From Bradyrhizobium sp. cir1 (GTDB taxonomy: Bacteria; Pseudomonadota; Alphaproteobacteria; Rhizobiales; Xanthobacteraceae), in contig NZ_JACIHE010000001.1 in assembly GCF_014198245.1 (NCBI RefSeq), forward strand, positions 124,001 through 188,000: a DNA stretch of 64,000 bases. Reading direction: 5' to 3'. The notes under the pieces were generated by a model. That model did not search any database. It was not told the DNA's origin and saw only the letters and a list, made by a program, of their open reading frames with translations. The translations under genes and the position numbers were made by a program. Shown here one piece after another: positions 4,248 to 15,966 of the stretch. Positions within the stretch are counted from its first letter, which is position 1. Each line of letters opens with the position of its first letter.

Positions 4248-5003
4248 TCAGTTCGGGTTCATGGCCGCAAAGGTCGCCTCGTAGCGGCCGTCGCGTTCGG
4301 CCCAGCGGCGGGCGCGGTCGCGCTCGACCAGCACTTCATCGCGGGGATGGACCCGCAACTCCAGTAATTGCATGACCTCCGCGATGTAGGCGGCGAGCGG
4401 CATGGCGCGCGCATCGCTTGCCTGCGCGGCGCCGGTGAGCTCGGTCTGCACATAGGGCGGCGTAAGCTCCAGCACCTCGATTGGGATCCTGCGGAGCTGA
4501 TGCCGCAGCGACTGCAGCCAGGAATGCAGGAACGCCTTGCTGGCGCAGTAGGTCGGGAAGTCGGCGCGGGGCACGAAGGCAAGGTTCGAGCTGGTTGCGA
4601 TGATCGTCGCGTTCGGCTGCTTCTTCAGAGCCGGCAGGAACGCCGCCGTGACGCGCAGCACGCCGAGAATGTTGGTCTCGACGATCGCCTCCGCGTCGGA
4701 GGCATCCCAGCCGGCCGCACTCATGTCCTCGGCTCGCGAGATGCCGGCGTTCGCGATCAGCACATTGAGCTCGGGAAATCGTGCGCGCATTTCGGCCGAC
4801 AGGCGCGGCAGGCTCGCGGGATCGTCGAGGTCGAGCGACATGCCGATCAGGCCGGGGCGCCCAGCCGTGATCTGATCGAGCAGAGCTTGCCGTCGCCCGG
4901 TGACGATGACGCGGTTGCCGCGGTCGTGGAAGGCTTCAGCGAGCGCGCGGCCGATGCCGCTGGTGCCGCCGGTGACGAGGATCGTGTTGCCAGTCATCTT
5001 CAT
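4248..5003 (-). CDS. Short-chain dehydrogenase/reductase, DltE-like
   Basis: This 251-aa NAD(P)-binding Rossmann protein has the classical SDR motifs: TGGTSGIG for the cofactor, NAG (IANAGISRAED) in the central strand, a serine in the ATSSN segment, and YCASK for the catalytic Tyr and Lys. The substrate cannot be read from sequence. The ATG at 5003 puts the Rossmann fold right at the N-terminus, as expected; longer in-frame starts would add about 120 residues of unrelated, unlikely sequence. An AAGG lies about 10 nt upstream. The gene is monocistronic and convergent with ctpA. Confidence 0.87.
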   Translation of the reverse strand: MKMTGNTILVTGGTSGIGRALAEAFHDRGNRVIVTGRRQALLDQITAGRPGLIGMSLDLDDPASLPRLSAEMRARFPELNVLIANAGISRAEDMSAAGWDASDAEAIVETNILGVLRVTAAFLPALKKQPNATIIATSSNLAFVPRADFPTYCASKAFLHSWLQSLRHQLRRIPIEVLELTPPYVQTELTGAAQASDARAMPLAAYIAEVMQLLELRVHPRDEVLVERDRARRWAERDGRYEATFAAMNPN

Positions 5004-5388
5004 GGTTGCTGCCTTTCGGTGGAGGTGAAGGCCACGGCAACCCTGGGAGTCCCGATGGTGCGCGATCCGGCAAGACAACGAACATCCAGGCGTGGTTGGG
5101 CAGCGCCGGAATGGGCATCTTGAACGGGGGAGCGTCCGCAAACAGGACGAGTGATGGCATGACCGTGGCGTCTCGTGAATCGAGATCTCCCTGCTGGGAT
5201 CCTCCCGACAAAGGACGCGTTGGATGACGGTAACGCCTACGGCAGCACCGTTTCGGCGGCTGCAATTCAGGAAATACGTTGGCCGGCCACGATCGTCAAG
5301 TCTGCAGCAACGGGAGTGGCTCGGCCCCGGGTTGATCTGGGAGGCGGTGATCCCGCAGCACGCAAGCCACGGGATCACGGCGCGATCG
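5004..5388. other. Intergenic stretch with no recognised gene
   Basis: These 385 bases contain open frames on both strands, but none has convincing codon use, a ribosome-binding site or a recognisable product. Upstream elements for the SDR gene are expected here, but I see no clear promoter. Confidence 0.4.
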
Positions 5389-5652
5389 TCATTGCTCCTT
5401 CTTCGAGCCCATGTGATGCGGGACTTCGGTCTTCGGTCCGCCGCCGTAATGGTGGCTGCCGCCAGATCCGCTGGTCGAGCCGCCGTCGCCCTCCTTCTTG
5501 CCCATGTGGTGCGGGACCTCGGTCTTGGGCCCGCCCGAATAATGGTGGCCGTTCTTCTCGTCGGTCGTGCCCGTCGTGCTCGTCTGCGCCACGGCGGGCA
5601 ACGCGACGAACGACATGATCGCGGCGGCGACGATCAGCTTGCGGTGACTCAT
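5389..5652 (-). CDS. Small exported protein with an internal tandem repeat
   Basis: This is an 87-aa protein with a clear signal peptide (MSHRKLIVAAAIMSFVALPA, cleavage near AVAQ). The mature part is essentially two copies of a unit reading HHYxGGPKTEVPHHMGxKK, joined by a Gly/Ser-rich linker. Each unit ends in a His-His-Met cluster, so metal binding is conceivable, but I know no characterised homologue. The ATG at 5652 follows TCCTG-type sequence on the plus strand (CAGGA on the coding strand). A TTGA-N6-TCAA box at 5748-5761 and a palindrome at 5689-5715 sit upstream, so expression may be linked to oxygen or redox state, like the divergent operon. Confidence 0.72.
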   Translation of the reverse strand: MSHRKLIVAAAIMSFVALPAVAQTSTTGTTDEKNGHHYSGGPKTEVPHHMGKKEGDGGSTSGSGGSHHYGGGPKTEVPHHMGSKKEQ

Positions 5653-5688
5653 TCTGGTTTCTCCTGTTTTGAACTTGTCGAGTTGGTG

Positions 5689-5715
5689 TCAATCAAGTCC
5701 CGGTGGCTTGATTGA
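5689..5715. promoter_or_regulatory. 9-bp inverted repeat upstream of the small exported protein
   Basis: TCAATCAAG and CTTGATTGA form a perfect inverted repeat around a 9-nt spacer, 37 nt before the start codon of the 87-aa gene. It may be an operator or a 5'-UTR hairpin; the sequence does not decide between them. Confidence 0.4.
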
Positions 5716-5747
5716 GTGCAAGCAAACCCGGAGTGTGTTCGCGCAGG

Positions 5748-5761
5748 TTGAGCAAGATCAA
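5748..5761. promoter_or_regulatory. Candidate FixK/FNR-type box (TTGA-N6-TCAA)
   Basis: The 14-mer TTGAGCAAGATCAA matches the rhizobial FixK/FNR half-sites exactly. It lies about 100 bp upstream of the minus-strand start at 5652. A second match 234 bp away faces the divergent opgC-cytochrome operon. Confidence 0.5.
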
Positions 5762-5994
5762 ATAGGAACGCGCGCGCTGGCGCGGGCCCTTGCGTAGATC
5801 GTCGAGTTGCAGCGGGCGACGAGAAGCATCGATCTTCTTACAGAAAAAAATTAATCCGCAGCGCGAAGTCGCGAGCGGCGCGCAGGGGCCTCGATCGTGC
5901 AGCGACATGGGCGCGAGATTGTCGTGGACGACAGGCGTCTCGATTCATTACGCGATTGAATCACAAAAAGATTTGGCTGGTGCCGCGATCGAGT

Positions 5995-6008
5995 TTGATG
6001 TCGGTCAA
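5995..6008. promoter_or_regulatory. Candidate FixK/FNR-type box upstream of the opgC-cytochrome operon
   Basis: TTGATGTCGGTCAA is an exact TTGA-N6-TCAA match and is further flanked by T on the left and A on the right, which extends the dyad to 16 bp. Its centre is about 102 nt before the TTG start of opgC. That spacing allows a class II position at a promoter whose transcript begins roughly 60 nt before the gene. Confidence 0.6.
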
Positions 6009-6103
6009 ATCGGGATCAATGACACAACCTAGCGTGCCGACGCGAATGAGCGGCGACGAGGTTGCGATCCGAAAGGCCGACCGCAAAAAAGGAGAACGCG
6101 CCG

Positions 6104-7324
6104 TTGACTGACGAGACTATTCACGACCCTGGTCGGCCCCTGCAGATTGCGCTTCTTTTGCGTCGGCGTCTCTGGGAGACGATCACGATCAGGTCGGTGC
6201 TGGTCAAGTCCCGGCGCGACGTGCGGCTGGATCTGTTTCGCGGCCTCGCGAACTGGCTGATCTTCCTCGGACACATTCCGGATTCGGCGCTCGCCTGGTT
6301 CACGACGCGAAACTATGGCTTCAGCGATGGCGCCGACCTGTTCGTGCTGATCTCCGGCTATACCGCGACCTTCGTGTTCGGCTCGATGATGATGGAGCGC
6401 GGCTTCGTCATCGGAGCAACTCGGCTGCTGCGGCGGGTATGGCAGCTCTATGTCGCCCACCTGCTGTTGTTCCTGGTTTATCTCACGTCCGTGCACTACG
6501 TCGCGCACAATTTCGACGAACTTCATTTGATGGATCAGTTCAACGTCGCGCCGCTGATGAACTTTCCGGTCGAGACGCTCTCGCAAGGTCTGGTCCTCAA
6601 GTTCAAGCCGCTCAATCTCGACGTTCTACCGCTCTACATCGTGTTGATGGCAGCATTTCCCATCGTGCTCTGGTTCATGCTGCGATGGCGCAATGCGGTG
6701 ATGACCGGCTCGCTTGGTCTCTATCTGGCCGCCCGACATTACGGCTTCAATCTGCCGTCCTATCCGGCTGGACTCTGGTATTTCAATCCGTTCGCGTGGC
6801 AGCTGCTCTTCGTATTTGGAGCCTGGCTGGCCTTGGGAGGGGCGGCAGCGAGCCGCTGGCTGCTGTCGTCCCGCACGCTGCTTGTCCTATGCGGTGGCTT
6901 CCTGCTCTTTGCGCTCGCGATGACGCTGGCTGAACGGATCCCGGGCCTCCGGGACTACATTCCCGGCGGGCTCGCCGCGATCTTCATTCCGAACGACAAA
7001 ACCAATCTCGGGCCGTATCGCATCATCCATCTGGCGAGCCTGGTGCTCATCGTCGTCTCGCTCATTCCAATCGACTGGCCCGGTCTGAAGTCGCCGCTGC
7101 TCCAGCCCCTGATCAGATGCGGCCAGCAGTCGCTGTCCGTGTTCTGCGTCGGCCTCTTTCTGTCCTTCGTCGCGCATTTCGTGCTCGAGTCCGGATCTGA
7201 GGGACTATGGGCCCAGTTGCTGGTCGGTGCCGCAGGCCTCTGGATCATGACGATCGTCGCCTATTACCGAACGTGGTCGAAGGACGTCGACAGGAGCCGC
7301 TCGGTCGCGGAGGCGGGCGGATGA
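6104..7324 (+). CDS. opgC: OpgC-domain membrane protein
   Basis: This is a 406-aa polytopic membrane protein of the OpgC family, which in other proteobacteria decorates osmoregulated periplasmic glucans with succinyl groups. The family signature near residues 43-58 reads DLFRGLANWLIFLGHIP, and about ten hydrophobic segments follow. The start is taken as TTG 6104, because a strong AAAAAAGGAG ends 9 nt before it; in-frame TTG 6062 lacks such a site. The stop codon overlaps the ATG of the next small gene (ATGA). It heads an unusual operon of metal-binding and electron-transfer proteins, so its role here may differ from plain osmoadaptation. Confidence 0.85.
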   Translation: MTDETIHDPGRPLQIALLLRRRLWETITIRSVLVKSRRDVRLDLFRGLANWLIFLGHIPDSALAWFTTRNYGFSDGADLFVLISGYTATFVFGSMMMERGFVIGATRLLRRVWQLYVAHLLLFLVYLTSVHYVAHNFDELHLMDQFNVAPLMNFPVETLSQGLVLKFKPLNLDVLPLYIVLMAAFPIVLWFMLRWRNAVMTGSLGLYLAARHYGFNLPSYPAGLWYFNPFAWQLLFVFGAWLALGGAAASRWLLSSRTLLVLCGGFLLFALAMTLAERIPGLRDYIPGGLAAIFIPNDKTNLGPYRIIHLASLVLIVVSLIPIDWPGLKSPLLQPLIRCGQQSLSVFCVGLFLSFVAHFVLESGSEGLWAQLLVGAAGLWIMTIVAYYRTWSKDVDRSRSVAEAGG

Positions 7325-7458
7325 TAAATTCCGAGCTGATCTTCACGGACGAGATTCAGGGCCTCGTTCTGCACGGCCTGCACTGGACCGCATCGACCAT
7401 CGAGCTGCTCGGGGTGGTGGTGATCGTCTGCGGAGTGCCAACCTCGATGATCAGATGA
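7321..7458 (+). CDS. Small single-pass membrane peptide (45 aa), possibly truncated
   Basis: The ATG overlaps the opgC stop as ATGA, so translation is probably coupled. The 45-residue product has an acidic N-terminus and one hydrophobic segment (about residues 25-39, ending VVVIVCGV). The HGLHW...IELLGVVVIVCGV portion is reminiscent of the N-terminal helix of DUF1622-type small membrane proteins, which are roughly 100 aa or more. If so, this copy is truncated right after the first helix. The family link is only by eye. Its TGA in turn overlaps an in-frame ATG (7455) of the next gene. Confidence 0.45.
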   Translation: MINSELIFTDEIQGLVLHGLHWTASTIELLGVVVIVCGVPTSMIR

Positions 7459-7487
7459 CCATCCGAATCAAACTTTGGAGAATGACC

Positions 7488-8195
7488 ATGAACTGTTCGA
7501 GAAAAATCGCCATGAGCGCAGCCGCTTTTGCCGGCCTCGCCCTCGGGCCGGTCGGGTTGTCGCCCGCAATCGCCGCTGGTCTTACGCGGACCGCGATGAT
7601 GGATGACGACAAGATGTCGAAGATGCCGAACCCGTCGGATTCCAGCGACAAGATGAACATGGGCCAGCCAGCGAGGCAGCCGCAGAACACGGGCGGCGGC
7701 CGGATGAACGACGACAAGATGAAGATGCCGCAGCAAGGCCAGATGCGGGACTGCCAAGGCGCCGGCTGTCAGGACAATTCCGGCATGACGCCGATGATGC
7801 AAATGATGGAGAAGATGATGCGCGGCCAGATGAGTTCATCCGGCAGCAGCGGCGCGATGAGCGGTCCTGTGGACGTGACCGAGCGGCTCGAGGGGCGGAT
7901 CGCCTTTCTGAAGGCGGAGCTGCAGATCAGCGACAGGCAGACCGCGGATTGGAACAGTGTCGCAGACGCCTTGCGTTCGAGCCGGCAGCACTTGCTGGAA
8001 GCACGCAAGATGCTTGCAATGGATGACAGGCTCGGAAGTGCCGATCGTCTGGAGCATTACGAGCGGCACTTGTCCGAGCGTCTGGAGGCAATCAAATCGG
8101 CTCGCCTTGCCTTCACGCGGCTCTACGCGTCGTTGAACGAGAACCAGAAGCAGACCGCGGATACGATCCTGCTGCCACTGATTGCGTCGTTCTGA
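7488..8195 (+). CDS. Met-rich periplasmic Spy/CpxP-like (LTXXQ) protein
   Basis: This is a 235-aa exported protein. The signal peptide covers residues 1 to about 29. A methionine-rich, Asp/Lys-containing region follows (about residues 32-125, with runs such as MTPMMQMMEKMMRGQM), and then a helical domain that ends in LNENQKQTADTILLPL, a variant of the LTXXQ motif of Spy/CpxP periplasmic chaperones and metal-stress proteins. Methionine clusters of this type bind Cu(I) or Ag(I) in other proteins, so metal binding is a reasonable inference. A GGAG 7 nt before ATG 7488 decides the start, although ATG 7455 overlaps the upstream stop. The next gene encodes a related periplasmic domain fused to a reductase. 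Confidence 0.75.
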   Translation: MNCSRKIAMSAAAFAGLALGPVGLSPAIAAGLTRTAMMDDDKMSKMPNPSDSSDKMNMGQPARQPQNTGGGRMNDDKMKMPQQGQMRDCQGAGCQDNSGMTPMMQMMEKMMRGQMSSSGSSGAMSGPVDVTERLEGRIAFLKAELQISDRQTADWNSVADALRSSRQHLLEARKMLAMDDRLGSADRLEHYERHLSERLEAIKSARLAFTRLYASLNENQKQTADTILLPLIASF

Positions 8196-8217
8196 CCGCT
8201 GAAGTGAACGCGGGATC

Positions 8218-10212
8218 ATGTTCGCTTTGTCTCTTCGACAACGCTCCGGCGTGCTGGCCCTTGTTGTCCTGGCGAGCCAGCTTGCGGCGATTGCCGCGCC
8301 GGCGTCGGACGTCGGCCGCGGCGTAACGCATCCGGCCGGGCAAATCGCCCAGCGCTGGGAGGTGGCGGAGACAGAAGGCGACCACGCGGCGCACCATCCC
8401 GCAGCGTCCGGCTCCACAGGCGATGCGGCGCCGAAGGGGGAGGGATCAGCAGGGCCGAGCGAGCGCCAAGCCGCCGGCCCGCCGCCCAGCGGCGCCACGT
8501 CGGGAATGATGGGGGGCATGGACGGCATGATGGGCCGGCCGCGCAAGGAGTTCTATCCGGCATTGATGGACATGCCGGCGCTGTCTGCCGAGCAGCGGAG
8601 CAAGCTGGCGGTCCAGGCGCGCGCGCGGATCAGCGCCGAGGCCGATCGCCTGGCGGGTGCAGAAATGGATCTGCGGCACGCCATGGCCGCGGGCGACATC
8701 GTTGCCGCGGATCAGGCGTCGCGGCGGCTTCGCGAGTCCCTGAACACCGTCCAGAGCGGCGTGATCGCGCTGCGCTCGCTGCACGTGGGCAGGCCGCCGC
8801 AGCAAATCGCGCAGGCCTGGTTCAAATCGCAAATGAACCTGCTGCCTCAGCAAGGCGGTGCAGATGTCGATAACGGCGCGCCGGGAGTCTCGTGGTTTCA
8901 CGTCACGACCATGGCGCTGTTGGCGCTGTTCGCGCTGGGGATGCTCGCGATTTACGTCGCGCGCATGCGCCGGGCGAACGCGCTGGTCGACCGGCTGACG
9001 CGCGCGGCGGTCGCGCCGGCTGCCGTCATGCCACTCGTGTCGATGCCAGCTGCCGGCTCGCCGAATGACAAGGTCGGGACGACATCTTCTTCTGAGACAA
9101 GCCGCCAACCGCGGCGCGATGAGGCGAGTAGCTTCTGGAAGGGCTCGCTGAGGATCTGCGCGATCTATCAGGAGACGCCAAACGTGAAGACCTTCCGTCT
9201 GCAAGCACCTGGCGGCGGGGCGATTCCGTTTGCGTTCCTGCCCGGCCAATTCCTGACCTACGCCATCGAAATTGGCGGAGCAACAGTCAGGCGCTCCTAC
9301 ACCATCGCATCATCCGCAGCCCAGACCGCCTATGTCGAGACCACGATCAAGCGCGAAGACGGCGGGCTTCTGTCCGACTACATGCATGGCCAGCTGAAGG
9401 AGGGAGACCTCGTCGAGGTTGCGGGCCCCTCCGGCGCCTTTACGTTCACGGGCTCGGAAGCTGACAGTGTCGTCCTGATCGGTGGCGGCGTCGGCATCAC
9501 GCCGCTGATGGCGGCGATCCGGTATCTGTCGGACATCGCATGGCCCGGCCAGATCTACCTCGTCTATGGTGCGCAGACGACCGAGCAATTCATCTTCCGG
9601 GACGAGCTCGAGTATCTCCAGCGCAGGATGATCAATTTGCACGTCGCGGCCACGATGATGCGGGCCGCAGGCACGTCCTGGATGGGAAGCGAGGGTCAGA
9701 TCACGGCCGAGTTCCTGACGCAGGCAGTGCCGGATCTTGCGAAACGGCGCGTTCATCTGTGTGGTCCGCCCGGAATGATGGAGGCGCTCCGGAAAACCCT
9801 GATCGGCCTCGGCGTGCCGCGCGAGCAGATCAAGACGGAGGCCTTCGGACCGGCCCGCGGAGCCGTTCCACCTCCTGGCAAAATCATCGCCGAAGCGCCG
9901 ATGGCGCAAGGTGAGGGCGGCAATCGAGAAGCCGCGGCGGTCGGTCCTGCAACGGCCACGATCCACTTTGCGAGATCGGGCAAGGTGGCGGCGCTGCCTC
10001 CGGACAAGAGCGTCCTGGAGGTGGCTGAAAGCGCCGGCGTGTCGATCGACTATTCGTGCAGGGCCGGGGTCTGCGGCGTCTGCAAGACGCATCTTCTGCA
10101 AGGCTCCGTCACGATGGAAGTCCAGGACGCCCTGACTGCAGACGACAAGGCGAACGGTCTCATCCTGGCCTGCCAGGCAAGATCGGTCGGAGATCTCGTC
10201 GTCGAGGCCTGA
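8218..10212 (+). CDS. Fusion of Spy-like periplasmic domain, TM helix, FAD/NAD(P) reductase and 2Fe-2S ferredoxin
   Basis: This 664-aa protein joins parts that are normally separate. Residues 1 to about 27 form a signal peptide or anchor. Residues 28-225 are periplasmic, with HAAHHP, a Met-rich stretch (MMGGMDGMMGRPRKEF) and a helical Spy/CpxP-like segment. Residues 226-248 are a transmembrane helix followed by Arg (ARMRR), which places the rest in the cytoplasm. Residues about 305-545 are a ferredoxin-NADP reductase-type module with the FAD motif RRSYTIAS (about 356), the pyridine nucleotide loop GGGVGITP (about 421) and CGPPGMM (about 515). Residues 575-664 are a plant-type 2Fe-2S ferredoxin with Cys614, 619, 622 and 652. 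It would pass NAD(P)H electrons to the b-type cytochrome encoded one base downstream. Confidence 0.85.
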   Translation: MFALSLRQRSGVLALVVLASQLAAIAAPASDVGRGVTHPAGQIAQRWEVAETEGDHAAHHPAASGSTGDAAPKGEGSAGPSERQAAGPPPSGATSGMMGGMDGMMGRPRKEFYPALMDMPALSAEQRSKLAVQARARISAEADRLAGAEMDLRHAMAAGDIVAADQASRRLRESLNTVQSGVIALRSLHVGRPPQQIAQAWFKSQMNLLPQQGGADVDNGAPGVSWFHVTTMALLALFALGMLAIYVARMRRANALVDRLTRAAVAPAAVMPLVSMPAAGSPNDKVGTTSSSETSRQPRRDEASSFWKGSLRICAIYQETPNVKTFRLQAPGGGAIPFAFLPGQFLTYAIEIGGATVRRSYTIASSAAQTAYVETTIKREDGGLLSDYMHGQLKEGDLVEVAGPSGAFTFTGSEADSVVLIGGGVGITPLMAAIRYLSDIAWPGQIYLVYGAQTTEQFIFRDELEYLQRRMINLHVAATMMRAAGTSWMGSEGQITAEFLTQAVPDLAKRRVHLCGPPGMMEALRKTLIGLGVPREQIKTEAFGPARGAVPPPGKIIAEAPMAQGEGGNREAAAVGPATATIHFARSGKVAALPPDKSVLEVAESAGVSIDYSCRAGVCGVCKTHLLQGSVTMEVQDALTADDKANGLILACQARSVGDLVVEA

Positions 10213-10213
10213 C

Positions 10214-10921
10214 ATGATGAACGGAAGAGCGCGCCTGTTCGCCGACGTCACTCTGGCGGCCCTGTTGCTGCTGGTGCCGGCTTTCCTGCTTCACTCCGAC
10301 GGCCGGTTTGCGGGAAGCCTGGCCGGCTTTGTGCTCGGGGCCGGTGCGGCGGCGCTGATGCTCCTCCTGCTCGTCTATCCCCTGGCGAAATACAGCACTG
10401 GCGTGAAGGCCCTGGTCACGCGATGGGTGTCGATGCCGACGCTCCTGGCGTTTCATGCCTATGCGGGAATCGTCGCAGCGTTCTTTGCGCTGCTGCATAC
10501 CGGCCACAAATTTCAGAGTCCGCTCGGGATCGCCCTGGTGACGTGCATGCTGATCGTCGTCGTCACCGGATTTGTCGGGCGCTATTACCTGCCGCTAACC
10601 GCGCTGGAGCTCCGCCAGCGGCAGTCGTATCTGGCGACGTTGAGATCGGCGTATGAGTACACCGCAGCGGCCATGTCGTCGCCCGATCGGGCGGAGCGTG
10701 ACGGGCCTGACATGCCTGCATTGGCCTTGCAGAATGTGCCGCTGCTGCAGCTCGTCGATAGCATTTCCGATCTCGAATCGGCCATCGGATCGAGTGAGGC
10801 GGTCAAGGCGATCTTCATGCAGTGGATCGGGCTGCATGTCTTGGCCGCGATCGTCATGTACGCGCTGCTGGCGGTGCATGTGTCGGCCGAGATCTATTAC
10901 GGACTGTGGTGGCTCGCGTGA
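10214..10921 (+). CDS. Membrane b-type cytochrome-like protein
   Basis: This 235-aa protein has about five or six hydrophobic helices. It carries two His pairs, His81/His95 and His208/His222, each 14 residues apart on one predicted helix. That is the classic spacing for two stacked hemes held between two helices of a cytochrome b or ferric reductase-like membrane domain. A hydrophilic loop of about 60 residues (138-197) separates the halves. I do not recognise a named family. It begins one base after the reductase fusion and its stop overlaps the start of the multiheme cytochrome, so it probably carries electrons across the membrane between them. Confidence 0.7.
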   Translation: MMNGRARLFADVTLAALLLLVPAFLLHSDGRFAGSLAGFVLGAGAAALMLLLLVYPLAKYSTGVKALVTRWVSMPTLLAFHAYAGIVAAFFALLHTGHKFQSPLGIALVTCMLIVVVTGFVGRYYLPLTALELRQRQSYLATLRSAYEYTAAAMSSPDRAERDGPDMPALALQNVPLLQLVDSISDLESAIGSSEAVKAIFMQWIGLHVLAAIVMYALLAVHVSAEIYYGLWWLA

Positions 10922-11697
10922 CCATCCGGGGCGTGCTCTACGTCGTGGTCGCGACACTGGCGATCGCAAGTGCAGCGGTCGCGTCGATCGCCTTGTATCG
11001 GGGCAGCTCGGGAAGCGTCCCGGGCTGGACGAGGCTCGTCAGTCCCGGACCGCTTTCCGCAAAACATGCATTTCTGTCCGACAGATGCGAGAGCTGCCAT
11101 ACGCCGATCAAAGGCGTCGAGGCGGCCGCCTGTATCACCTGTCATGCGCCTTCCGCCGCGGATCTCGCCAAGCAATCGACGGCGTTTCACGCTGTGGTGG
11201 GCGGTCAATGCTCCGGCTGCCACCGCGAGCACTCTGGCGACTTGCGGCCGATCAGGATGAACCATGCGTCGCTGCTGCAAGTCACGATGCCCGCCTCCGG
11301 CAAGAAGGTGTTCGACCGGACCTCTGCCGACCAACTGAGGGCCGACCTGACGGAGTTTCTGGGCCTGCCAAGGTCCGACCGGCCGGAAAGAGCTGCGCTC
11401 GATTGCGCCAGCTGCCACAGCAATCGGGAACCGCACCGCGGATTGTTTGGACCGGAATGCGCGGATTGCCATGGGCTCGAGGCCTGGAAGATCGCAGGTT
11501 TCCTGCATCCCTCGCCGACCTCGAAGGACTGCGCCCAATGCCATCAGGCGCCGCCGAGCCACTACATGGGCCACTTCATCATGATGGATCGGATGATCGC
11601 GGGGCAGGAGCACGCATCGGTCGATCAATGCTTTCTGTGCCACAGGACGGACTCGTTCAACGACATCAAAGGCGTCGGCTGGATGAAGCATCATTGA
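10918..11697 (+). CDS. Heptaheme c-type cytochrome, membrane-anchored
   Basis: This is a 259-aa protein with an N-terminal signal anchor (residues 6-27) and seven CxxCH heme c sites, in order CESCH, CITCH, CSGCH, CASCH, CADCH, CAQCH and CFLCH. Extra histidines are available as distal ligands. The pattern resembles cytochrome c3/class III or NapC-like periplasmic multiheme proteins. The GTG start at 10918 overlaps the TGA of the cytochrome b gene. It would act on the periplasmic face as the outlet, or inlet, for electrons from the upstream reductase and cytochrome b. The natural donor or acceptor is unknown; the linked metal-binding proteins make a metal ion one candidate. Confidence 0.88.
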   Translation: MTIRGVLYVVVATLAIASAAVASIALYRGSSGSVPGWTRLVSPGPLSAKHAFLSDRCESCHTPIKGVEAAACITCHAPSAADLAKQSTAFHAVVGGQCSGCHREHSGDLRPIRMNHASLLQVTMPASGKKVFDRTSADQLRADLTEFLGLPRSDRPERAALDCASCHSNREPHRGLFGPECADCHGLEAWKIAGFLHPSPTSKDCAQCHQAPPSHYMGHFIMMDRMIAGQEHASVDQCFLCHRTDSFNDIKGVGWMKHH

Positions 11698-11860
11698 CCG
11701 GCGCTCGACGCAGACGGGCCTCCTACATTACAGGGACAGCGAAAAATATCTCACGAGCCACGCCGCCGGAGCATGATGGCTTTGCGTCGCCCGGAACCGT
11801 TGGACGAATGTGGCGCAGCGTCTGTCCCGACGCTGCCGGCTCGAGATGCATCGTTTTCTG

Positions 11861-11889
11861 TTGGCCGACAGTACAACCAGAGTTATATG
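11861..11889 (+). promoter_or_regulatory. Possible sigma-70 promoter for the His/Cys-rich gene
   Basis: TTGGCC and TATATG are separated by 17 nt and end 26 nt before the ATG at 11916. The -10 is good and the -35 only partial, so the next gene may be transcribed separately from the cytochrome operon. Confidence 0.35.
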
Positions 11890-11915
11890 TTCCACGGCGC
11901 GTAGCGGGAGCGGAA

Positions 11916-12305
11916 ATGATTGGCTTGATCAGGCCAAGGCGAAGGTGGTGGGGATGGCTTGTCGCCATCGCCTATCTGCTTGCGTCGATGACGCCGTCTC
12001 TCGCGGTCTCGATCGTCCCCGTCACGGCGATTCCGTGCGAGCATCAACCTGCGCATGAGGCCGATGCCGGACCGGCGGTGCATTCGCACGACGTGGCGAT
12101 GACCGGCGATTGTGACGACGACCGGGACGAGCCCAGGGATCGGCATGCGACCTGCTGCGGCTCGGTGCTGTGCTTCAGCGCCGTATCGCCTCAAGCTCCC
12201 GCGATTGCGGAGTTCGTGGTGCCGCACTCGCGCTGCGAGGCGCAGCCGGACGTGATCGGCGACGAAGGTGCGTTCCGTCGTCACTACCGGCCCCCCATCG
12301 CCTGA
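11916..12305 (+). CDS. Exported His/Cys/Asp-rich protein, possible metal binder
   Basis: This is a 129-aa protein with an arginine-rich N-terminus and a hydrophobic signal or anchor (residues 11-34). The mature part contains CEHQPAHE, VHSHD, an acidic CDDDRDEPRDRH segment and a CC pair followed by SVLC. The composition resembles small exported proteins found beside copper-resistance genes (the DUF2946 type comes to mind), but I cannot confirm the family. GGGAG lies about 6 nt before the ATG. It sits between the heptaheme cytochrome and an ECF sigma factor with its own cysteine motif, which strengthens a metal-response reading for the neighbourhood. Confidence 0.6.
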   Translation: MIGLIRPRRRWWGWLVAIAYLLASMTPSLAVSIVPVTAIPCEHQPAHEADAGPAVHSHDVAMTGDCDDDRDEPRDRHATCCGSVLCFSAVSPQAPAIAEFVVPHSRCEAQPDVIGDEGAFRRHYRPPIA

Positions 12306-12625
12306 GATAGCTCCCAAAGACCGAACTGCGTCGCTCAGATCCGGGCGCGAAGCGACACGTCTGCGAAGGACACATGTCCAAGCAGACGGCGGCGATGCGC
12401 GCAAGGTCTCGCACGCGCAGGCGCGGCAGAGCCGGCCTCGCTCGCTGCTCGCGCGCGCTGCGCGTTGAGCGGGAGAGCGCCGAAATCGTGATCAGCACTT
12501 GCGGTAGCCAAGTTGGCCGCGTGAGTGCCGCCATAGCGGCGGCCTCTCGCGCCCCTTGTCCGGATTTGACCCGTTCCCGCCACCGTGAAGCGAGCTGCTG
12601 AAATGGCATGCAAGGACGATACGTC
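12306..12625. other. Intergenic region upstream of the ECF sigma factor
   Basis: This is a 320-base gap. Open frames here, on either strand, look like frame shadows. ECF genes are often autoregulated, so a promoter is expected, but I could not identify convincing -35 or -10 elements. A GG-N10-GC pair near 12511-12524 departs too far from the sigma-54 consensus. Confidence 0.4.
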
Positions 12626-13237
12626 ATGAAATCGCCGAACGAGAGTCTGCCGATGCAGACAGCCGATTCCCTGAACGCGCAGGACACGGTCGTTCGGGCC
12701 GCCCTCGTCGGCAGCTACGATCGCCTCCGCGGTTATCTGCAGCGACGCTTTGGTGGTCAGGCGGAAGCGGAGGAGGTGCTCCAGGCATTCATGTTGCGCG
12801 CACTGGAGCGCTCCGCCGACATCCGCGATGCGGATTCGGTTCGAGGCTGGCTGAGCAGGGTCCTGGCAACGACCATCGCCGACTTTCACCGCCAGGCATC
12901 AAGGAGCAGGACGCGGGAGGTGCCGTTCCCGAACGAGCTCAACGATCGTCTTGCGGCCGAGCAGGACGCCGCGGCGAATGCCGCGGTCTGCGAGTGTCTT
13001 CATACGCACCTTTCACTGCTGAAGCCGGAGCATGCCGAGGTCATCAGAAGGGTCGATCTCGGCGGTGAGCCGCGGGAGCTCGTTGCAGCCGATCTGGGGG
13101 TGACCGTGAACAACCTGACTGTCCGGCTTCATCGCGCGCGGCACGCACTGAAGGAGCGCCTCGAGCAGACCTGCGTCGTATGTCTCGAGGAGAGCTTCTG
13201 GGAGTGCCGCTGCGCCGACAACCGAGGTCCGACCTAA
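12626..13237 (+). CDS. ECF-type RNA polymerase sigma factor with C-terminal cysteine motif
   Basis: This is a 203-aa sigma-70 family protein. Region 2 covers about residues 28-95 (LRGYLQRRFGGQAEAEEVLQ, then SVRGWLSRVL). Region 4 covers about 120-178, with a helix-turn-helix and the LHRARHALKERLEQ recognition end. After region 4 come four cysteines, Cys183, 186, 194 and 196, in a CxxC-x7-CxC arrangement. Metal-sensing ECF factors such as Myxococcus CorE carry a C-terminal Cys-rich domain, so direct sensing is a reasonable hypothesis, and no anti-sigma gene is adjacent. The start at 12626 follows AAGGA by 9 nt. Its stop overlaps the stop of the convergent GGDEF-EAL gene. Confidence 0.85.
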   Translation: MKSPNESLPMQTADSLNAQDTVVRAALVGSYDRLRGYLQRRFGGQAEAEEVLQAFMLRALERSADIRDADSVRGWLSRVLATTIADFHRQASRSRTREVPFPNELNDRLAAEQDAAANAAVCECLHTHLSLLKPEHAEVIRRVDLGGEPRELVAADLGVTVNNLTVRLHRARHALKERLEQTCVVCLEESFWECRCADNRGPT

Positions 13238-15966
13238 CCGGCCTCGCGCCGGCGGCTCTCGCCGCCTTCGCGCCGGGCGAGCCGGCTGCGATGCAGCGCG
13301 AACAGCTCCAGCACCTTGTCGGCAGGCTTGGCGGCGCTGAACAGATAACCTTGCATCTCGGAGCATCCGAGCGCGCGGAGCAGGCGCTGCTGCTCCTCGG
13401 TCTCGACACCCTCGGCCGTTGTGGTCATGCGACGGGCGGCCGCCAGGTTGACGACGGCCTGGACGATGCTGGCGGAGCCGTCGGGACCGGCGATGTCGTC
13501 GACGAAGCAGCGGTCGATCTTGATCTTGTCGAACGGGAAGCGGTGCAGATAGCTCAGCGAGGAATAGCCGGTGCCGAAATCGTCGAGCGCGATACGCACG
13601 CCGATGGCGCGGAGCTGGTGCAGGATCGCGAGCGCCGCGTCGTCGTCGCGGATCAGCACCGCCTCGGTGATCTCGAGCTCGAGCCGGCTCGCCGGCAGAT
13701 TGGAGGCGGCGAGCGCAGCCATGATCTTCAGCGCCAGCGTGCCGCTCTTGAACTGCACCGGCGAGACGTTGACGGCGAGGCGGATGTCGTCGGGCCAGCC
13801 GGCCGCATCCCGGCAGGCGGTCGCCAGCACCCATTCGCCGATCTCGTTGATCAGGCCGGTGTCTTCGGCGATCGGGATAAACTCGGCCGGCGAGACCATG
13901 CCGCGCTCCGGATGGCGCCAGCGCACCAGCGCCTCGCAGCCGGTGATGCGGTCGTCCTTCAGGGCGAGGCAGGGCTGGTAGTAGACCTCGAGGCCGCCTT
14001 CGAGCCCCCCTTGGGCGATGGCGTGGCGCAGGTCGATCTCGAGCTGACGCCGCTCGCGGACCTTGGCATCCATCTCGGGCTCGAAGAAGCGATAGGTGCG
14101 GCGTCCGGCGGATTTGGCGGCGTACATCGCAAGGTCGGCGTTCTTCAGGATCTGGTCCAGCGCCGTGCCGTGTCCCGGCGCCAGCGCGATGCCGATGCTG
14201 GCGTCGCTGGTGAGATGGTGGCCCATGCAGTCGAACGGGGTGCGGATGGCCTGGAAGACCCGGGCGACGAGATCGTTGACCTGATCCGGCGAGGTCACCG
14301 CGCTCTGCACGATGGCAAATTCGTCGCCGCCGAGCCGCGCCACGAAATCCGTCGGGCCGGCGGAGCGGCTGAGGCTCGTTGCGACCGATTTCAGCAGCTC
14401 GTCGCCGACGAGATGGCCGAGCGCATCGTTGACGCCCTTGAACTCGTCGATGTCGATGTAGTGCACCGCGACCTCTTCGCCATGGGCGATGGCGGCCAGC
14501 TCCTGCCGCAGATGCTCGTGGAACATGGCGCGGTTGGGCAGGTCGGTCAGCGCGTCGTAGTGGGCGAGGTGGGTGATGCGCTCTTCGATGCGCCGGCGCT
14601 CGGTGATGTCCTCGTGCGTCGCCACCCAGCCGCCGTCGGCGAGCGGTTCATTGAGGATTTGGATCGAGCGGCCATCCGCGGTGTCCACCACCATGGAATT
14701 GCGTACATGTATGTCGCGCAGCACGCGTTCGGTATATTGATCGACATCGCCGGTGAACGAGCCGGTCATCTTGCGATGAGCGATGACGTCGCGGAAGCTG
14801 CAGCCCGGCGTCACCACGGCGGCCGACAGGCCGTACATGTCGATGTAGCGCTGATTGCACACCACGAGCCGCCGGTCCGCGTCGAACAACAGCAAGCCCT
14901 GGGTCATGTTGTTGACGGCGCGGTCGAGACGTTGCTTCTCCAGCATCAGCCTTTCCCGCGAGAGGCGGTGCTGCTCCAGCAGCTTGCGCACGATCGCGAT
15001 CAGCACGCCGGCGATGGCGAGCGCGGAAGAGGCGGCGACCGAGATCAGGATGCCGATCTGCTCGCGCCAGTCTGTCAGCGCCGCCGCGCGTGTCGTGGTC
15101 GCCATCATCAGGATCGGGAAGTGGGGCAGGGCGTGCGAGGCGATCAGGCGGTCCTCGCCGTCGACCGGGCTCATGAAGCGTCCGGCGAAGTGATCGAGCC
15201 CGAAGACCCGCTGCTGCTCGAACGGGCCGGTCTTGAAATTCCGCCCCATCAACTCGCTGGAATGGGGATAGCGGGCGAGCAGCGTGCCGTCACGGTGCAA
15301 CATCGAGATCGTCGCGCCTTCGCCGAGCACCACGGATTCGAAGAACTTCTCGAAATTGGCGGGCTCGATGCCGCGCCCGACCACGCCGATGAACTCGCCG
15401 TTCGGGCCCACGATCTTGCGGACGATCAGGATGGTCCAGGCGCCGGAGATGCGACTGTGCAGCGGCTCGATCAGGACATCGGGCGAATAGGGGTCGTATT
15501 TGAAAGTGCGGAAATAGGCGCGATCGGCAACGTTCACCTTGGGGGCCGGCCATGCCGTCGACGAGTTGATCAGATTGCCGTCGGCATCGATGACATTGAC
15601 GCCGCCCATATAGGGCAGCGCCTCGATCTTCGAGCGCAGCATCCGATGGATGTCCTGCCCGGAGAGGCGCTTGCGATAGTCTTCCGCGCTGGCAATGCCG
15701 GTCGCGCGGACGTGGTCGACGAAATCCTTCTGGATGACCGCGAAATCCTGCAATTGCTGATCGAAATGATGGGCCAGCATCAGCACGGTGTTTTCCAGCT
15801 CGCGGCCGGAATTGCGCAGCGCGCGTTCGCGGAAATTCTGCGCCATCAGCGTCGCGCCGACCGCGATCGCGGCGATCAGCAGCGTGCCGCCCACGACCAG
15901 CCAGCGGATCGGTCCGCTGCGCACGAAGGCCTGGTCGAAAAGGCGACTGCCGTATTTCGTCATCAT
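13234..15966 (-). CDS. Membrane-bound Cache-PAS-GGDEF-EAL cyclic-di-GMP enzyme
   Basis: This is a protein of about 910 residues. It has a transmembrane helix (about 20-42), a periplasmic Cache-like sensor (about 45-290), a second transmembrane helix (about 300-325), a PAS domain (about 335-440), a GGDEF domain with intact RLGGDEF near residue 545, and an EAL domain with intact CEALVRW near 675 and DDFGTGYSS near 815. Both catalytic signatures look complete, so it could make or degrade cyclic-di-GMP depending on the signal. The start is uncertain: ATG 15966 is chosen over GTG 15987, and neither has a strong ribosome-binding site. It is convergent with the ECF gene; the two stop codons overlap. 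Confidence 0.9.
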   Translation of the reverse strand: MMTKYGSRLFDQAFVRSGPIRWLVVGGTLLIAAIAVGATLMAQNFRERALRNSGRELENTVLMLAHHFDQQLQDFAVIQKDFVDHVRATGIASAEDYRKRLSGQDIHRMLRSKIEALPYMGGVNVIDADGNLINSSTAWPAPKVNVADRAYFRTFKYDPYSPDVLIEPLHSRISGAWTILIVRKIVGPNGEFIGVVGRGIEPANFEKFFESVVLGEGATISMLHRDGTLLARYPHSSELMGRNFKTGPFEQQRVFGLDHFAGRFMSPVDGEDRLIASHALPHFPILMMATTTRAAALTDWREQIGILISVAASSALAIAGVLIAIVRKLLEQHRLSRERLMLEKQRLDRAVNNMTQGLLLFDADRRLVVCNQRYIDMYGLSAAVVTPGCSFRDVIAHRKMTGSFTGDVDQYTERVLRDIHVRNSMVVDTADGRSIQILNEPLADGGWVATHEDITERRRIEERITHLAHYDALTDLPNRAMFHEHLRQELAAIAHGEEVAVHYIDIDEFKGVNDALGHLVGDELLKSVATSLSRSAGPTDFVARLGGDEFAIVQSAVTSPDQVNDLVARVFQAIRTPFDCMGHHLTSDASIGIALAPGHGTALDQILKNADLAMYAAKSAGRRTYRFFEPEMDAKVRERRQLEIDLRHAIAQGGLEGGLEVYYQPCLALKDDRITGCEALVRWRHPERGMVSPAEFIPIAEDTGLINEIGEWVLATACRDAAGWPDDIRLAVNVSPVQFKSGTLALKIMAALAASNLPASRLELEITEAVLIRDDDAALAILHQLRAIGVRIALDDFGTGYSSLSYLHRFPFDKIKIDRCFVDDIAGPDGSASIVQAVVNLAAARRMTTTAEGVETEEQQRLLRALGCSEMQGYLFSAAKPADKVLELFALHRSRLARREGGESRRREAG

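What the first reader, a model, noticed from the sequence alone, without database searches (positions are those of the whole stretch)
7321..11697. Candidate undescribed transmembrane electron-transfer module joined to metal-binding proteins
Within a tightly spaced operon the sequence encodes a Met-rich Spy-like protein, a cytoplasmic NAD(P)H/FAD/2Fe-2S reductase carried on a periplasmic Spy-like domain, a membrane protein with two His pairs each 14 residues apart (81/95 and 208/222), and a membrane-anchored cytochrome with seven CxxCH sites. The parts make a complete path from NAD(P)H to the periplasm. From known families, Met clusters bind Cu(I)/Ag(I), and multiheme c proteins exchange electrons with metals or oxidases. 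The inference is a system that reduces or oxidises a periplasmic metal or an unknown acceptor under low oxygen.
Basis: partly seen in the sequence, partly recalled or inferred. Interest (0 to 1): 0.88.

Follow-up and report, generated by a model that had tools for sequence, protein, structure and literature searches.

The report
Copper-linked electron relay across membrane
Neighbouring genes in a Bradyrhizobium-like bacterium encode a predicted relay that would carry electrons from the cell's NAD(P)H across the inner membrane to a seven-heme protein outside it; the same three core genes occur together in six phyla and on plasmids, often beside copper-resistance genes, so the relay likely handles copper, probably when oxygen is low.

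Summary
The genes are as described. The core is three genes: an anchored FAD/NAD(P)/2Fe-2S reductase (FUS), a diheme-b-type membrane protein (B; H81/H95, H208/H222) and a heptaheme cytochrome (CYT). Their order holds in 73 of 80 fetched loci by an automated test, and on the 20 plasmids I opened of 52 (26 conjugative). In 49 genomes, CopB lies within 10 kb of B in 17 of 41 cases (expected 0.25), CopA-type oxidase 14 of 34 (0.21), DUF1622 20 of 38 (0.22); arsenic acr3 0 of 38, mercury MerT 0 of 27. Hydrogenase is a rarer neighbour (4 of 14 within 20 kb, expected 0.14). Against: the window's own clade has no copper marker nearby (0 of 13 loci), and the fused domain shows no homology to Spy. Best explanation: a low-oxygen, NAD(P)H-driven electron supply to the periplasm, most likely for copper; metal, direction and potentials are untested. 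Ten literature searches found no description of the three-gene system; by gene order B and CYT are the Orf1/Cyt of the Alteromonas hydrogenase cluster.

The parts
5389..5652 (-). small secreted-looking His/Met-rich protein (two HHYxGGPKTEVPHHMG repeats), divergent from the operon
   Evidence: translation; tblastn match in 20 fetched loci
5748..5761 (.). perfect TTGA-N6-TCAA palindrome (FixK/FNR-like, name recalled)
   Evidence: present in 14 of 14 relatives with the same gene layout
5995..6008 (.). second perfect TTGA-N6-TCAA palindrome, 53 bp before the OpgC reading frame
   Evidence: present in 12 of 14 relatives
6062..7324 (+). OpgC-family membrane protein, possible first gene of the transcript
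   Evidence: PF10129, 453.6 bits
7321..7458 (+). remnant (45 aa) of a DUF1622 gene; full-length in L003 and L014
   Evidence: PF07784 in L003
7485..8195 (+). standalone Met-rich Spy/LTXXQ protein
   Evidence: PF07813 69.1 bits; 23 Met of 236 aa
8218..10212 (+). FUS: signal peptide-like start - His/Met-rich linker - predicted periplasmic helical hairpin - TM - FAD/NAD(P) reductase - 2Fe-2S ferredoxin
8383..8400 (+). HxxHH motif of FUS (H56, H59, H60), candidate metal ligands
   Evidence: at least 95% conserved among 79 aligned sequences
8893..8961 (+). predicted single TM segment of FUS (about residues 226-248)
   Evidence: helix 226-264 in the model; hydrophobic run seen in the sequence
10214..10921 (+). 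B: membrane protein with two HX13H pairs (H81/H95, H208/H222), predicted to bind two b hemes
   Evidence: invariant in 57 members; AlphaFold2 pLDDT 86.4
10918..11697 (+). CYT: N-terminal TM anchor plus seven CxxCH; PF14522, PF14537 and PF09699 over cut-off
   Evidence: seven CxxCH in 81 of 81 aligned sequences. Sites start at 11086, 11131, 11209, 11404, 11458, 11530, 11629
11916..12305 (+). small Cys/His-containing protein, weak CopL-family match (below cut-off)
   Evidence: NF033807 19 bits, cut-off 40; similar by eye to a frame family of 19 other loci

Best explanation
The genes FUS-B-CYT (window 8218-11697) form a conserved cassette, found also on plasmids, predicted to pass electrons from NAD(P)H through FAD and a 2Fe-2S cluster to two membrane b hemes and on to a periplasmic seven-heme cytochrome, which likely reduces copper(II), or copper held by Met/His-rich partner proteins, probably mainly when oxygen is low. 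Steps. (1) NAD(P)H is oxidised in the cytoplasm by the FUS reductase domain (domains shown, activity inferred). (2) Electrons cross the membrane through two bis-His hemes of B, by analogy pairs 81/208 and 95/222 (ligand pattern shown, hemes inferred). (3) They reach CYT, whose seven hemes could store several electrons (motifs shown). (4) The His/Met-rich periplasmic segment of FUS and the standalone Spy or PF13801-like protein would hold copper near CYT (inferred). (5) Cu(I) made there could be kept as Cu(I) for Cus/CopB/P1B-type handling; at low oxygen the O2-dependent CopA oxidase would not undo it (inferred). Expression is likely switched by a FixK/FNR-type regulator in Bradyrhizobium and other Alphaproteobacteria.
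For: Order FUS-B-CYT in 73 of 80 loci by an automated test (two of these, L071 and L081, with an interrupted FUS); of the other 7, four (L054, L055, L056, L080) have the same order with over-long reading frames, two (L063, L079) are cut by contig ends, one (L052) has gaps of 2.2 and 1.0 kb. Pairwise distances of the three proteins correlate at 0.90-0.95 over 2850 pairs (shared descent alone would also give this). Copper: in 49 genomes CopB 17 of 41 within 10 kb of B (expected 0.25), Cu-ATPase 19 of the 150 listed (0.76), copper_res_A 14 of 34 (0.21); acr3 0 of 38; MerT 0 of 27. A copper-marker match lies in 52 of 80 loci. Of 19 plasmid records opened first, 10 name copper resistance or multicopper oxidase genes beside the cassette; a 20th (L102) shows CopC, CopD and an RND pump. 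Low oxygen. H56/H59/H60 of FUS and nine non-CxxCH His of CYT are at least 95% conserved.
Against: None of eight copper markers in 0 of 13 loci of the window's own clade; in the window's genome the Cu-ATPases are on other contigs and no copper_res_A passes its cut-off (CopB was not searched there). 15 of 67 loci outside the clade also have none, 7 of these being under 13 kb. Nine of the first 19 plasmid records opened name no copper resistance or multicopper oxidase gene in the stretch shown. Some islands pair the cassette with hydrogenase or with sugar-storage and pentose-phosphate genes, so copper may not be the only or the true acceptor. Copper islands usually oxidise Cu(I) (recalled); making Cu(I) looks counter-intuitive. 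The MerR-type regulators beside five plasmid copies are not assigned to copper: MerR, ZntR and CueR models score alike, all below cut-off.
Confidence: 0.5

Rival explanations
1. Low-oxygen redox valve: the cassette disposes of excess NAD(P)H by passing electrons to a periplasmic or soluble acceptor other than copper, and shares islands with copper genes only because both help survival in the same habitats.
For: FixK/FNR-like sites near the head of the cassette in Alphaproteobacteria; neighbouring G6PDH, transaldolase, glycogen synthase, phosphorylase, DUF3141 and ATP-synthase genes in some loci; phosphoketolase, AdhP and gnd on plasmids.
Against: Does not explain the copper enrichment with zero within 10 kb for arsenic and mercury, nor the conserved HxxHH of FUS. 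Those carbon-gene families occur in few loci (3-9 of 82 each).
Confidence: 0.2
2. Hydrogen link: a periplasmic [NiFe] hydrogenase gives electrons to CYT, and the cassette runs inward, reducing NAD(P)+.
For: Full-length hydrogenase large subunit within 20 kb of B in 4 of 14 cases (expected 0.14); FUS-B-CYT one gene before the hydrogenase genes in Alteromonas and Glaciecola; a Spy-related one-CxxCH protein beside the hydrogenase in L030, L041 and L043 and, by eye, in BTAi1.
Against: Most loci show no hydrogenase: tblastn finds large-subunit matches in 4 of the 80 genome loci and small-subunit matches, some partial, in 7. By gene order Orf1 (B) and Cyt (CYT) were not necessary for maximal hydrogenase activity in E. 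coli (PMC3102683 passage), though that assay need not test electron transfer.
Confidence: 0.1
3. Protein repair: like MsrPQ, the cassette supplies electrons to repair oxidised methionines in Met-rich copper proteins.
For: MsrPQ is induced by copper and maintains CusF methionines (abstract of PMC9302797); the Spy partner here is Met-rich. That MsrQ is a diheme protein fed by a flavin reductase is recalled.
Confidence: 0.07
4. Passenger: the cassette is generic mobile cargo that rides in metal islands without a copper function.
For: Patchy: 5 of 149 family genomes, the window's own among them and one a weak partial match, and found on plasmids.
Against: The association recurs in six phyla and both halves of the B tree, and is absent within 10 kb for arsenic and mercury genes that also ride in islands.
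Confidence: 0.1

Closest known systems
Inner-membrane proteins of PCC3/PCC4 porin-cytochrome clusters (He et al. 2017, PMC5566968, sections 15 and 17 read)
   Same: B has HX13H twice, W-X3-H-X13-H on the last helix and a (T/S)GXXG between; both kinds are paired with multiheme c.
   Different: PCC3 proteins are about 300 aa and sit with a porin and MHCs of tens of hemes, and are thought to work with quinone; here a dedicated NAD(P)H reductase, 235 aa and seven hemes.
NADPH oxidase / ferric reductase family (NOX, FRE, SpNOX)
   Same: Flavin reductase feeding two stacked b hemes to the far side of the membrane (recalled; HX13H pattern also in PMC5566968 section 17).
   Different: Reductase is a separate polypeptide with its own TM, an added 2Fe-2S domain and a His/Met-rich periplasmic segment; electrons would continue to a heptaheme c. 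PF01794 match is below cut-off.
MsrPQ
   Same: Membrane-fed periplasmic reductase with a copper-stress link (abstract of PMC9302797).
   Different: No MsrP-like subunit seen; the periplasmic partner is a heptaheme cytochrome.
CrpH (PepSY_TM) and CcoG, proposed bacterial copper reductases (passages of PMC13038864)
   Same: Proposed copper reduction at or near the membrane.
   Different: Different protein families; CrpH is linked to heme-copper oxidases, not to resistance islands.
Orf1-Cyt of the Alteromonas macleodii HynSL hydrogenase cluster (PMC3102683, passages)
   Same: By gene order these are B and CYT of the same cassette.
   Different: Named there only among hydrogenase accessory genes; FUS and the copper setting are not mentioned in the passages I read.

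Membership tests
Spy/LTXXQ (PF07813): standalone protein | passes the family cut-off | tested here: met
   69.1 bits, cut-off 24.3
Spy/LTXXQ or Metal_resist: N-terminal domain of FUS | sequence homology to the family | tested here: not met
   no such family listed for 45 members; HHalign 0.1% and 3%. Fold search of this domain alone not done (no fold jobs left)
PaaE/BenC-like FAD/NAD(P) reductase with Fer2: FUS | FAD_binding_6 + NAD_binding_1 + Fer2 | tested here: met
   45 of 45 members; none of the 25 NCBIfam models shown reaches its cut-off
Ferric reductase domain PF01794: B | passes the Pfam cut-off | tested here: not met
   18 bits, cut-off 28; 5 of 57 members match at E up to 0.01, DUF4405 (PF14358) in 18 of 57
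Ferric reductase domain PF01794: B | two HX13H pairs on two helices | tested here: met
   H81/H95 and H208/H222 invariant in 57, on helices 74-95 and 170-234 of the model
Ferric reductase domain / NOX fold: B | fold match | tested here: inconclusive
PCC3/PCC4 inner-membrane proteins: B | SGXXG motif and WX3HX13H on two helices | tested here: inconclusive
   G119 and G122 invariant, residue 118 T or S in the rows shown; W204-X3-H208-X13-H222 present (W at least 90%); no W four before H81 in the window
PCC3 cluster | porin plus MHCs of tens of hemes in the cluster | tested here: not met
   CYT has seven CxxCH; no porin among the eight window proteins typed. A porin gene does lie some genes upstream in Glaciecola
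Cytochrome c7/c3 family: CYT | Pfam cut-off and CxxCH repeats | tested here: met
   PF14522 35.4 (24.8), PF14537 30.2 (25), PF09699 24.9 (20.6)
MsrPQ | MsrP molybdoenzyme partner | not tested
   absent from the four proteins; neighbours not searched for it specifically
Periplasmic copper reductase | Cu(II) reduction by the protein | not testable with these tools
   needs biochemistry

The most novel reading that the evidence does not exclude
A new kind of bacterial copper-handling machine: a FixK/FNR-switched, NAD(P)H- or hydrogen-powered transmembrane copper reductase with its own His/Met-rich copper-holding arm and a seven-heme electron store, spread between phyla on conjugative plasmids as the low-oxygen counterpart of the O2-dependent CopA oxidase.
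Probability: 0.3. Interest if true: 0.9.

Novelty: new variant of a known kind. Interest (0 to 1): 0.76.

Why it matters
How Gram-negative cells manage periplasmic copper when O2-using oxidases cannot work is poorly resolved (my own view of the field). A dedicated, mobile electron supply to periplasmic copper would give a concrete, testable answer, would explain genes now annotated 'cytochrome c3 family', 'iron reductase' and '2Fe-2S iron-sulfur cluster-binding protein' on copper plasmids, and would join hydrogenase, low-oxygen control and copper tolerance in one unit.

Tried and rejected
Spy homology of the fused domain: rejected. Foldseek of B against the PDB gave no match at E 0.001 or better; VIA-align gave b-type cytochromes among unrelated helical bundles of equal or higher Z. 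The FUS structure search is filled by the reductase domain, so the hairpin is untested. phmmer of CYT against PDB sequences: none at E up to 1; of B: three at E 0.66 or above, taken as chance. Rfam: none at gathering score in 5000-13500. Promoter/terminator scan near chance. The looser palindrome TTGAT-N4-ATCAA with up to 2 mismatches is in excess over the whole window (33 against 12.5 expected), so it says nothing about this operon; only perfect, kept sites were used. MerR-type regulators as proof of copper sensing: set aside, models tie; they carry a CP...DCPI-like tail and a Ser that I recall as CueR-like, no call shows that. PCC3 as the identity of the system: rejected (seven hemes). Cu(I) oxidation with electrons to NAD+: rejected on redox grounds (recalled potentials).

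Limits of the counts. The 49 genomes were chosen because they hold B (50 of 80 loci asked, one not held); near-identical genomes (for example L041/L043/L044, L069/L072/L073) are not independent; expectations use rounded genome sizes and ignore contig ends. Rows dropped: B matches with E above 1e-50 (4 of 66); two CopB pieces of one gene merged (42 rows to 41); copper_res_A only over its cut-off, first piece of each gene (34), from a list cut short by the tool; acr3 and MerT below cut-off (2 of 40, 3 of 30); two DUF1622 fragments of 40; hydrogenase limited to 14 full-length of 25; Cu-ATPase only the 150 that the tool listed. At 50 kb acr3 is 2 of 38 (expected 0.85) and MerT 4 of 27 (0.64), so islands do mix at that distance. 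The CopA and second-oxidase probes can find each other's families. The window's 'own clade' of 13 loci was set by me from identity. Palindrome background: 0.143 per kb in the Bradyrhizobium-like loci, the sites themselves included; the -210 to +105 interval was chosen after seeing the hits (the scan covered -1500 to +150), and several of the 15 loci are near kin.


Full report

IS IT A UNIT? Yes. Eighty loci encoding B were fetched from a collection with one genome per species (the best 80 of 92 confirmed). In 73 of 80 an automated test finds FUS ending within 200 nt of B and CYT overlapping or abutting B on the same strand; in two of these, L071 and L081, FUS is interrupted. The other seven: four show the same order with over-long reading frames (L054, L055, L056, L080), two are cut by contig ends (L063, L079), and L052 has gaps of 2.2 and 1.0 kb. 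All 81 CYT sequences aligned, window included, have exactly seven CxxCH, and nine further His are at least 95% conserved, two more than seven bis-His hemes would need. Protein distances of B, FUS and CYT correlate at 0.90-0.95 (2850 pairs; L052, L063, L071, L079, L081 left out), which shared descent alone could give. The loci span Pseudomonadota, Planctomycetota, Nitrospirota, Acidobacteriota and Candidatus Binatota; Bacteroidota come in through L052 and, with the genes in order, through Spirosoma and Pontibacter plasmids. In the window's family 5 of 149 genomes had a match, the window's own among them and one weak and partial. On the B tree two Pseudomonadota rows sit with Nitrospira (100/98), which fits transfer but does not prove it.

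MOBILITY. tblastn finds B and CYT each in 52 of 72,556 plasmid records, 26 of them typed conjugative. I opened 20 of the 52. All 20 show a 2Fe-2S/FAD-reductase gene, a gene of about 205-253 codons in the place of B, and CYT, in that order; CYT is unannotated at the matched place in two (L090, L098) and the reductase is in two pieces in L098.

COPPER. Families typed around the cassette include CopA-type oxidase (TIGR01480), CopB, Cu P1B-ATPase, CusA/CzcA, CusF, a CopI-like cupredoxin (below cut-off) and DUF411. In 49 genomes holding B, counts within 10 kb of any of 62 B genes were: CopB 17 of 41 (expected 0.25), Cu-ATPase 19 of 150 listed (0.76), copper_res_A 14 of 34 (0.21), arsenite acr3 0 of 38 (0.17), mercury MerT 0 of 27 (0.13), DUF1622 20 of 38 (0.22). 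At 20 kb acr3 is still 0 of 38 and MerT 1 of 27; at 50 kb they are 2 of 38 and 4 of 27. A match to one of eight copper markers is present in 52 of 80 loci: 52 of 67 outside the window's close clade and 0 of 13 inside it. So for the window itself the copper link is by kinship, plus a Met-rich Spy, a DUF1622 remnant and a weak, below-cut-off CopL-like gene. In the window's genome the two Cu-ATPases are on other contigs and no copper_res_A passes its cut-off. Of the first 19 plasmid records opened, 10 carry genes named copper resistance or multicopper oxidase in the stretch shown; 9 do not.

HYDROGENASE AND SUGAR STORES. Full-length [NiFe] hydrogenase large subunits lie within 20 kb of B in 4 of 14 cases (expected 0.14) and within 10 kb in 2 of 14 (0.07). 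In Alteromonas macleodii pAlt83_a the order is DUF411, TolC, RND pump, CopC, CopD ... FUS-B-CYT, one further gene, hydrogenase and its maturation genes, MerR, P-type ATPase, cupredoxin: the hydrogenase is nested in a copper island. By order, B and CYT are the Orf1 and Cyt of the A. macleodii HynSL cluster, reported as not necessary for maximal activity in E. coli (PMC3102683, passages). Other neighbours in some loci are G6PDH, transaldolase, glycogen synthase, phosphorylase and DUF3141; the first could supply NADPH (inference).

LOW OXYGEN. Two perfect TTGA-N6-TCAA palindromes lie at 5748 and 5995, between the divergent His/Met-rich gene and OpgC. The window has 3 such sites against 0.35 expected in shuffles. 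In 14 relatives with that layout the first is present in 14 and the second in 12, with varying spacers. Elsewhere 15 of 78 loci have a perfect site between -210 and +105 of the first cassette frame (longest-frame start, so offsets are rough; interval chosen after seeing the hits) where about 3.5 are expected from the background of 0.143 per kb; by record title all 15 are Alphaproteobacteria, several of them near kin. That such sites bind FixK2/FNR-type regulators is recalled, not tested.

HOW IT LIKELY WORKS. Electron flow from NAD(P)H outward is the downhill direction for a copper acceptor (recalled potentials). The conserved HxxHH of FUS and the Met-rich Spy or PF13801-like (below cut-off) partner would present copper to CYT; 42 of 67 loci with at least 2.5 kb upstream have such a partner ending within 2.5 kb upstream. 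I give the bare path 0.85, a copper-related role 0.7, and copper reduction under low oxygen as the main role 0.5.

LITERATURE. Ten searches listed no paper that I could recognise as describing FUS-B-CYT as a copper system; I read passages and sections 15 and 17 of PMC5566968, passages of PMC13038864 and PMC3102683, and the outline with abstract of PMC9302797; the rest only as search listings. The library lacks most subscription journals.

Noticed in passing
5389-5652 (-): Small secreted-looking protein with two HHYxGGPKTEVPHHMG repeats, divergent from the operon and sharing the palindrome-bearing intergenic region; matches in 20 fetched loci. Possible copper-binding peptide.
   Followed up: partly
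12608-13237 (+): ECF sigma factor, SigZ-like (below cut-off), with a Cys-rich tail; a relative lies in 17 other fetched loci.
   Followed up: no
L093:8123-9034 (-); L030:12566-13489 (+); L041 and L043:2871-3725 (-): Spy-related protein with one CxxCH beside a periplasmic-type [NiFe] hydrogenase; phmmer links the L030, L041 and L043 copies to the window's Spy, the L093 copy is likened by eye.
   Followed up: partly
L066:6259-8151 (+): Carbohydrate phosphorylase whose N-terminus reads like a YHS metal-binding motif (by eye; Pfam typed only the phosphorylase), directly upstream of FUS.
   Followed up: no
L082:13722-14162 (+), L092:10028-10474 (+): Genes annotated as four-helix bundle copper-binding proteins after CYT and DUF1622 on Sphingobium and Caulobacter plasmids.
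   Followed up: no
L003:597-1007 and other loci: DUF1622, a family of unknown function, is as strongly tied to the cassette as CopB (20 of 38 within 10 kb); no paper in the library holds both DUF1622 and copper.
   Followed up: partly
L093:32622-33257 (-): BTAi1 plasmid carries a second, shortened FUS with its own B-like gene and CYT beside an IS3 element.
   Followed up: no
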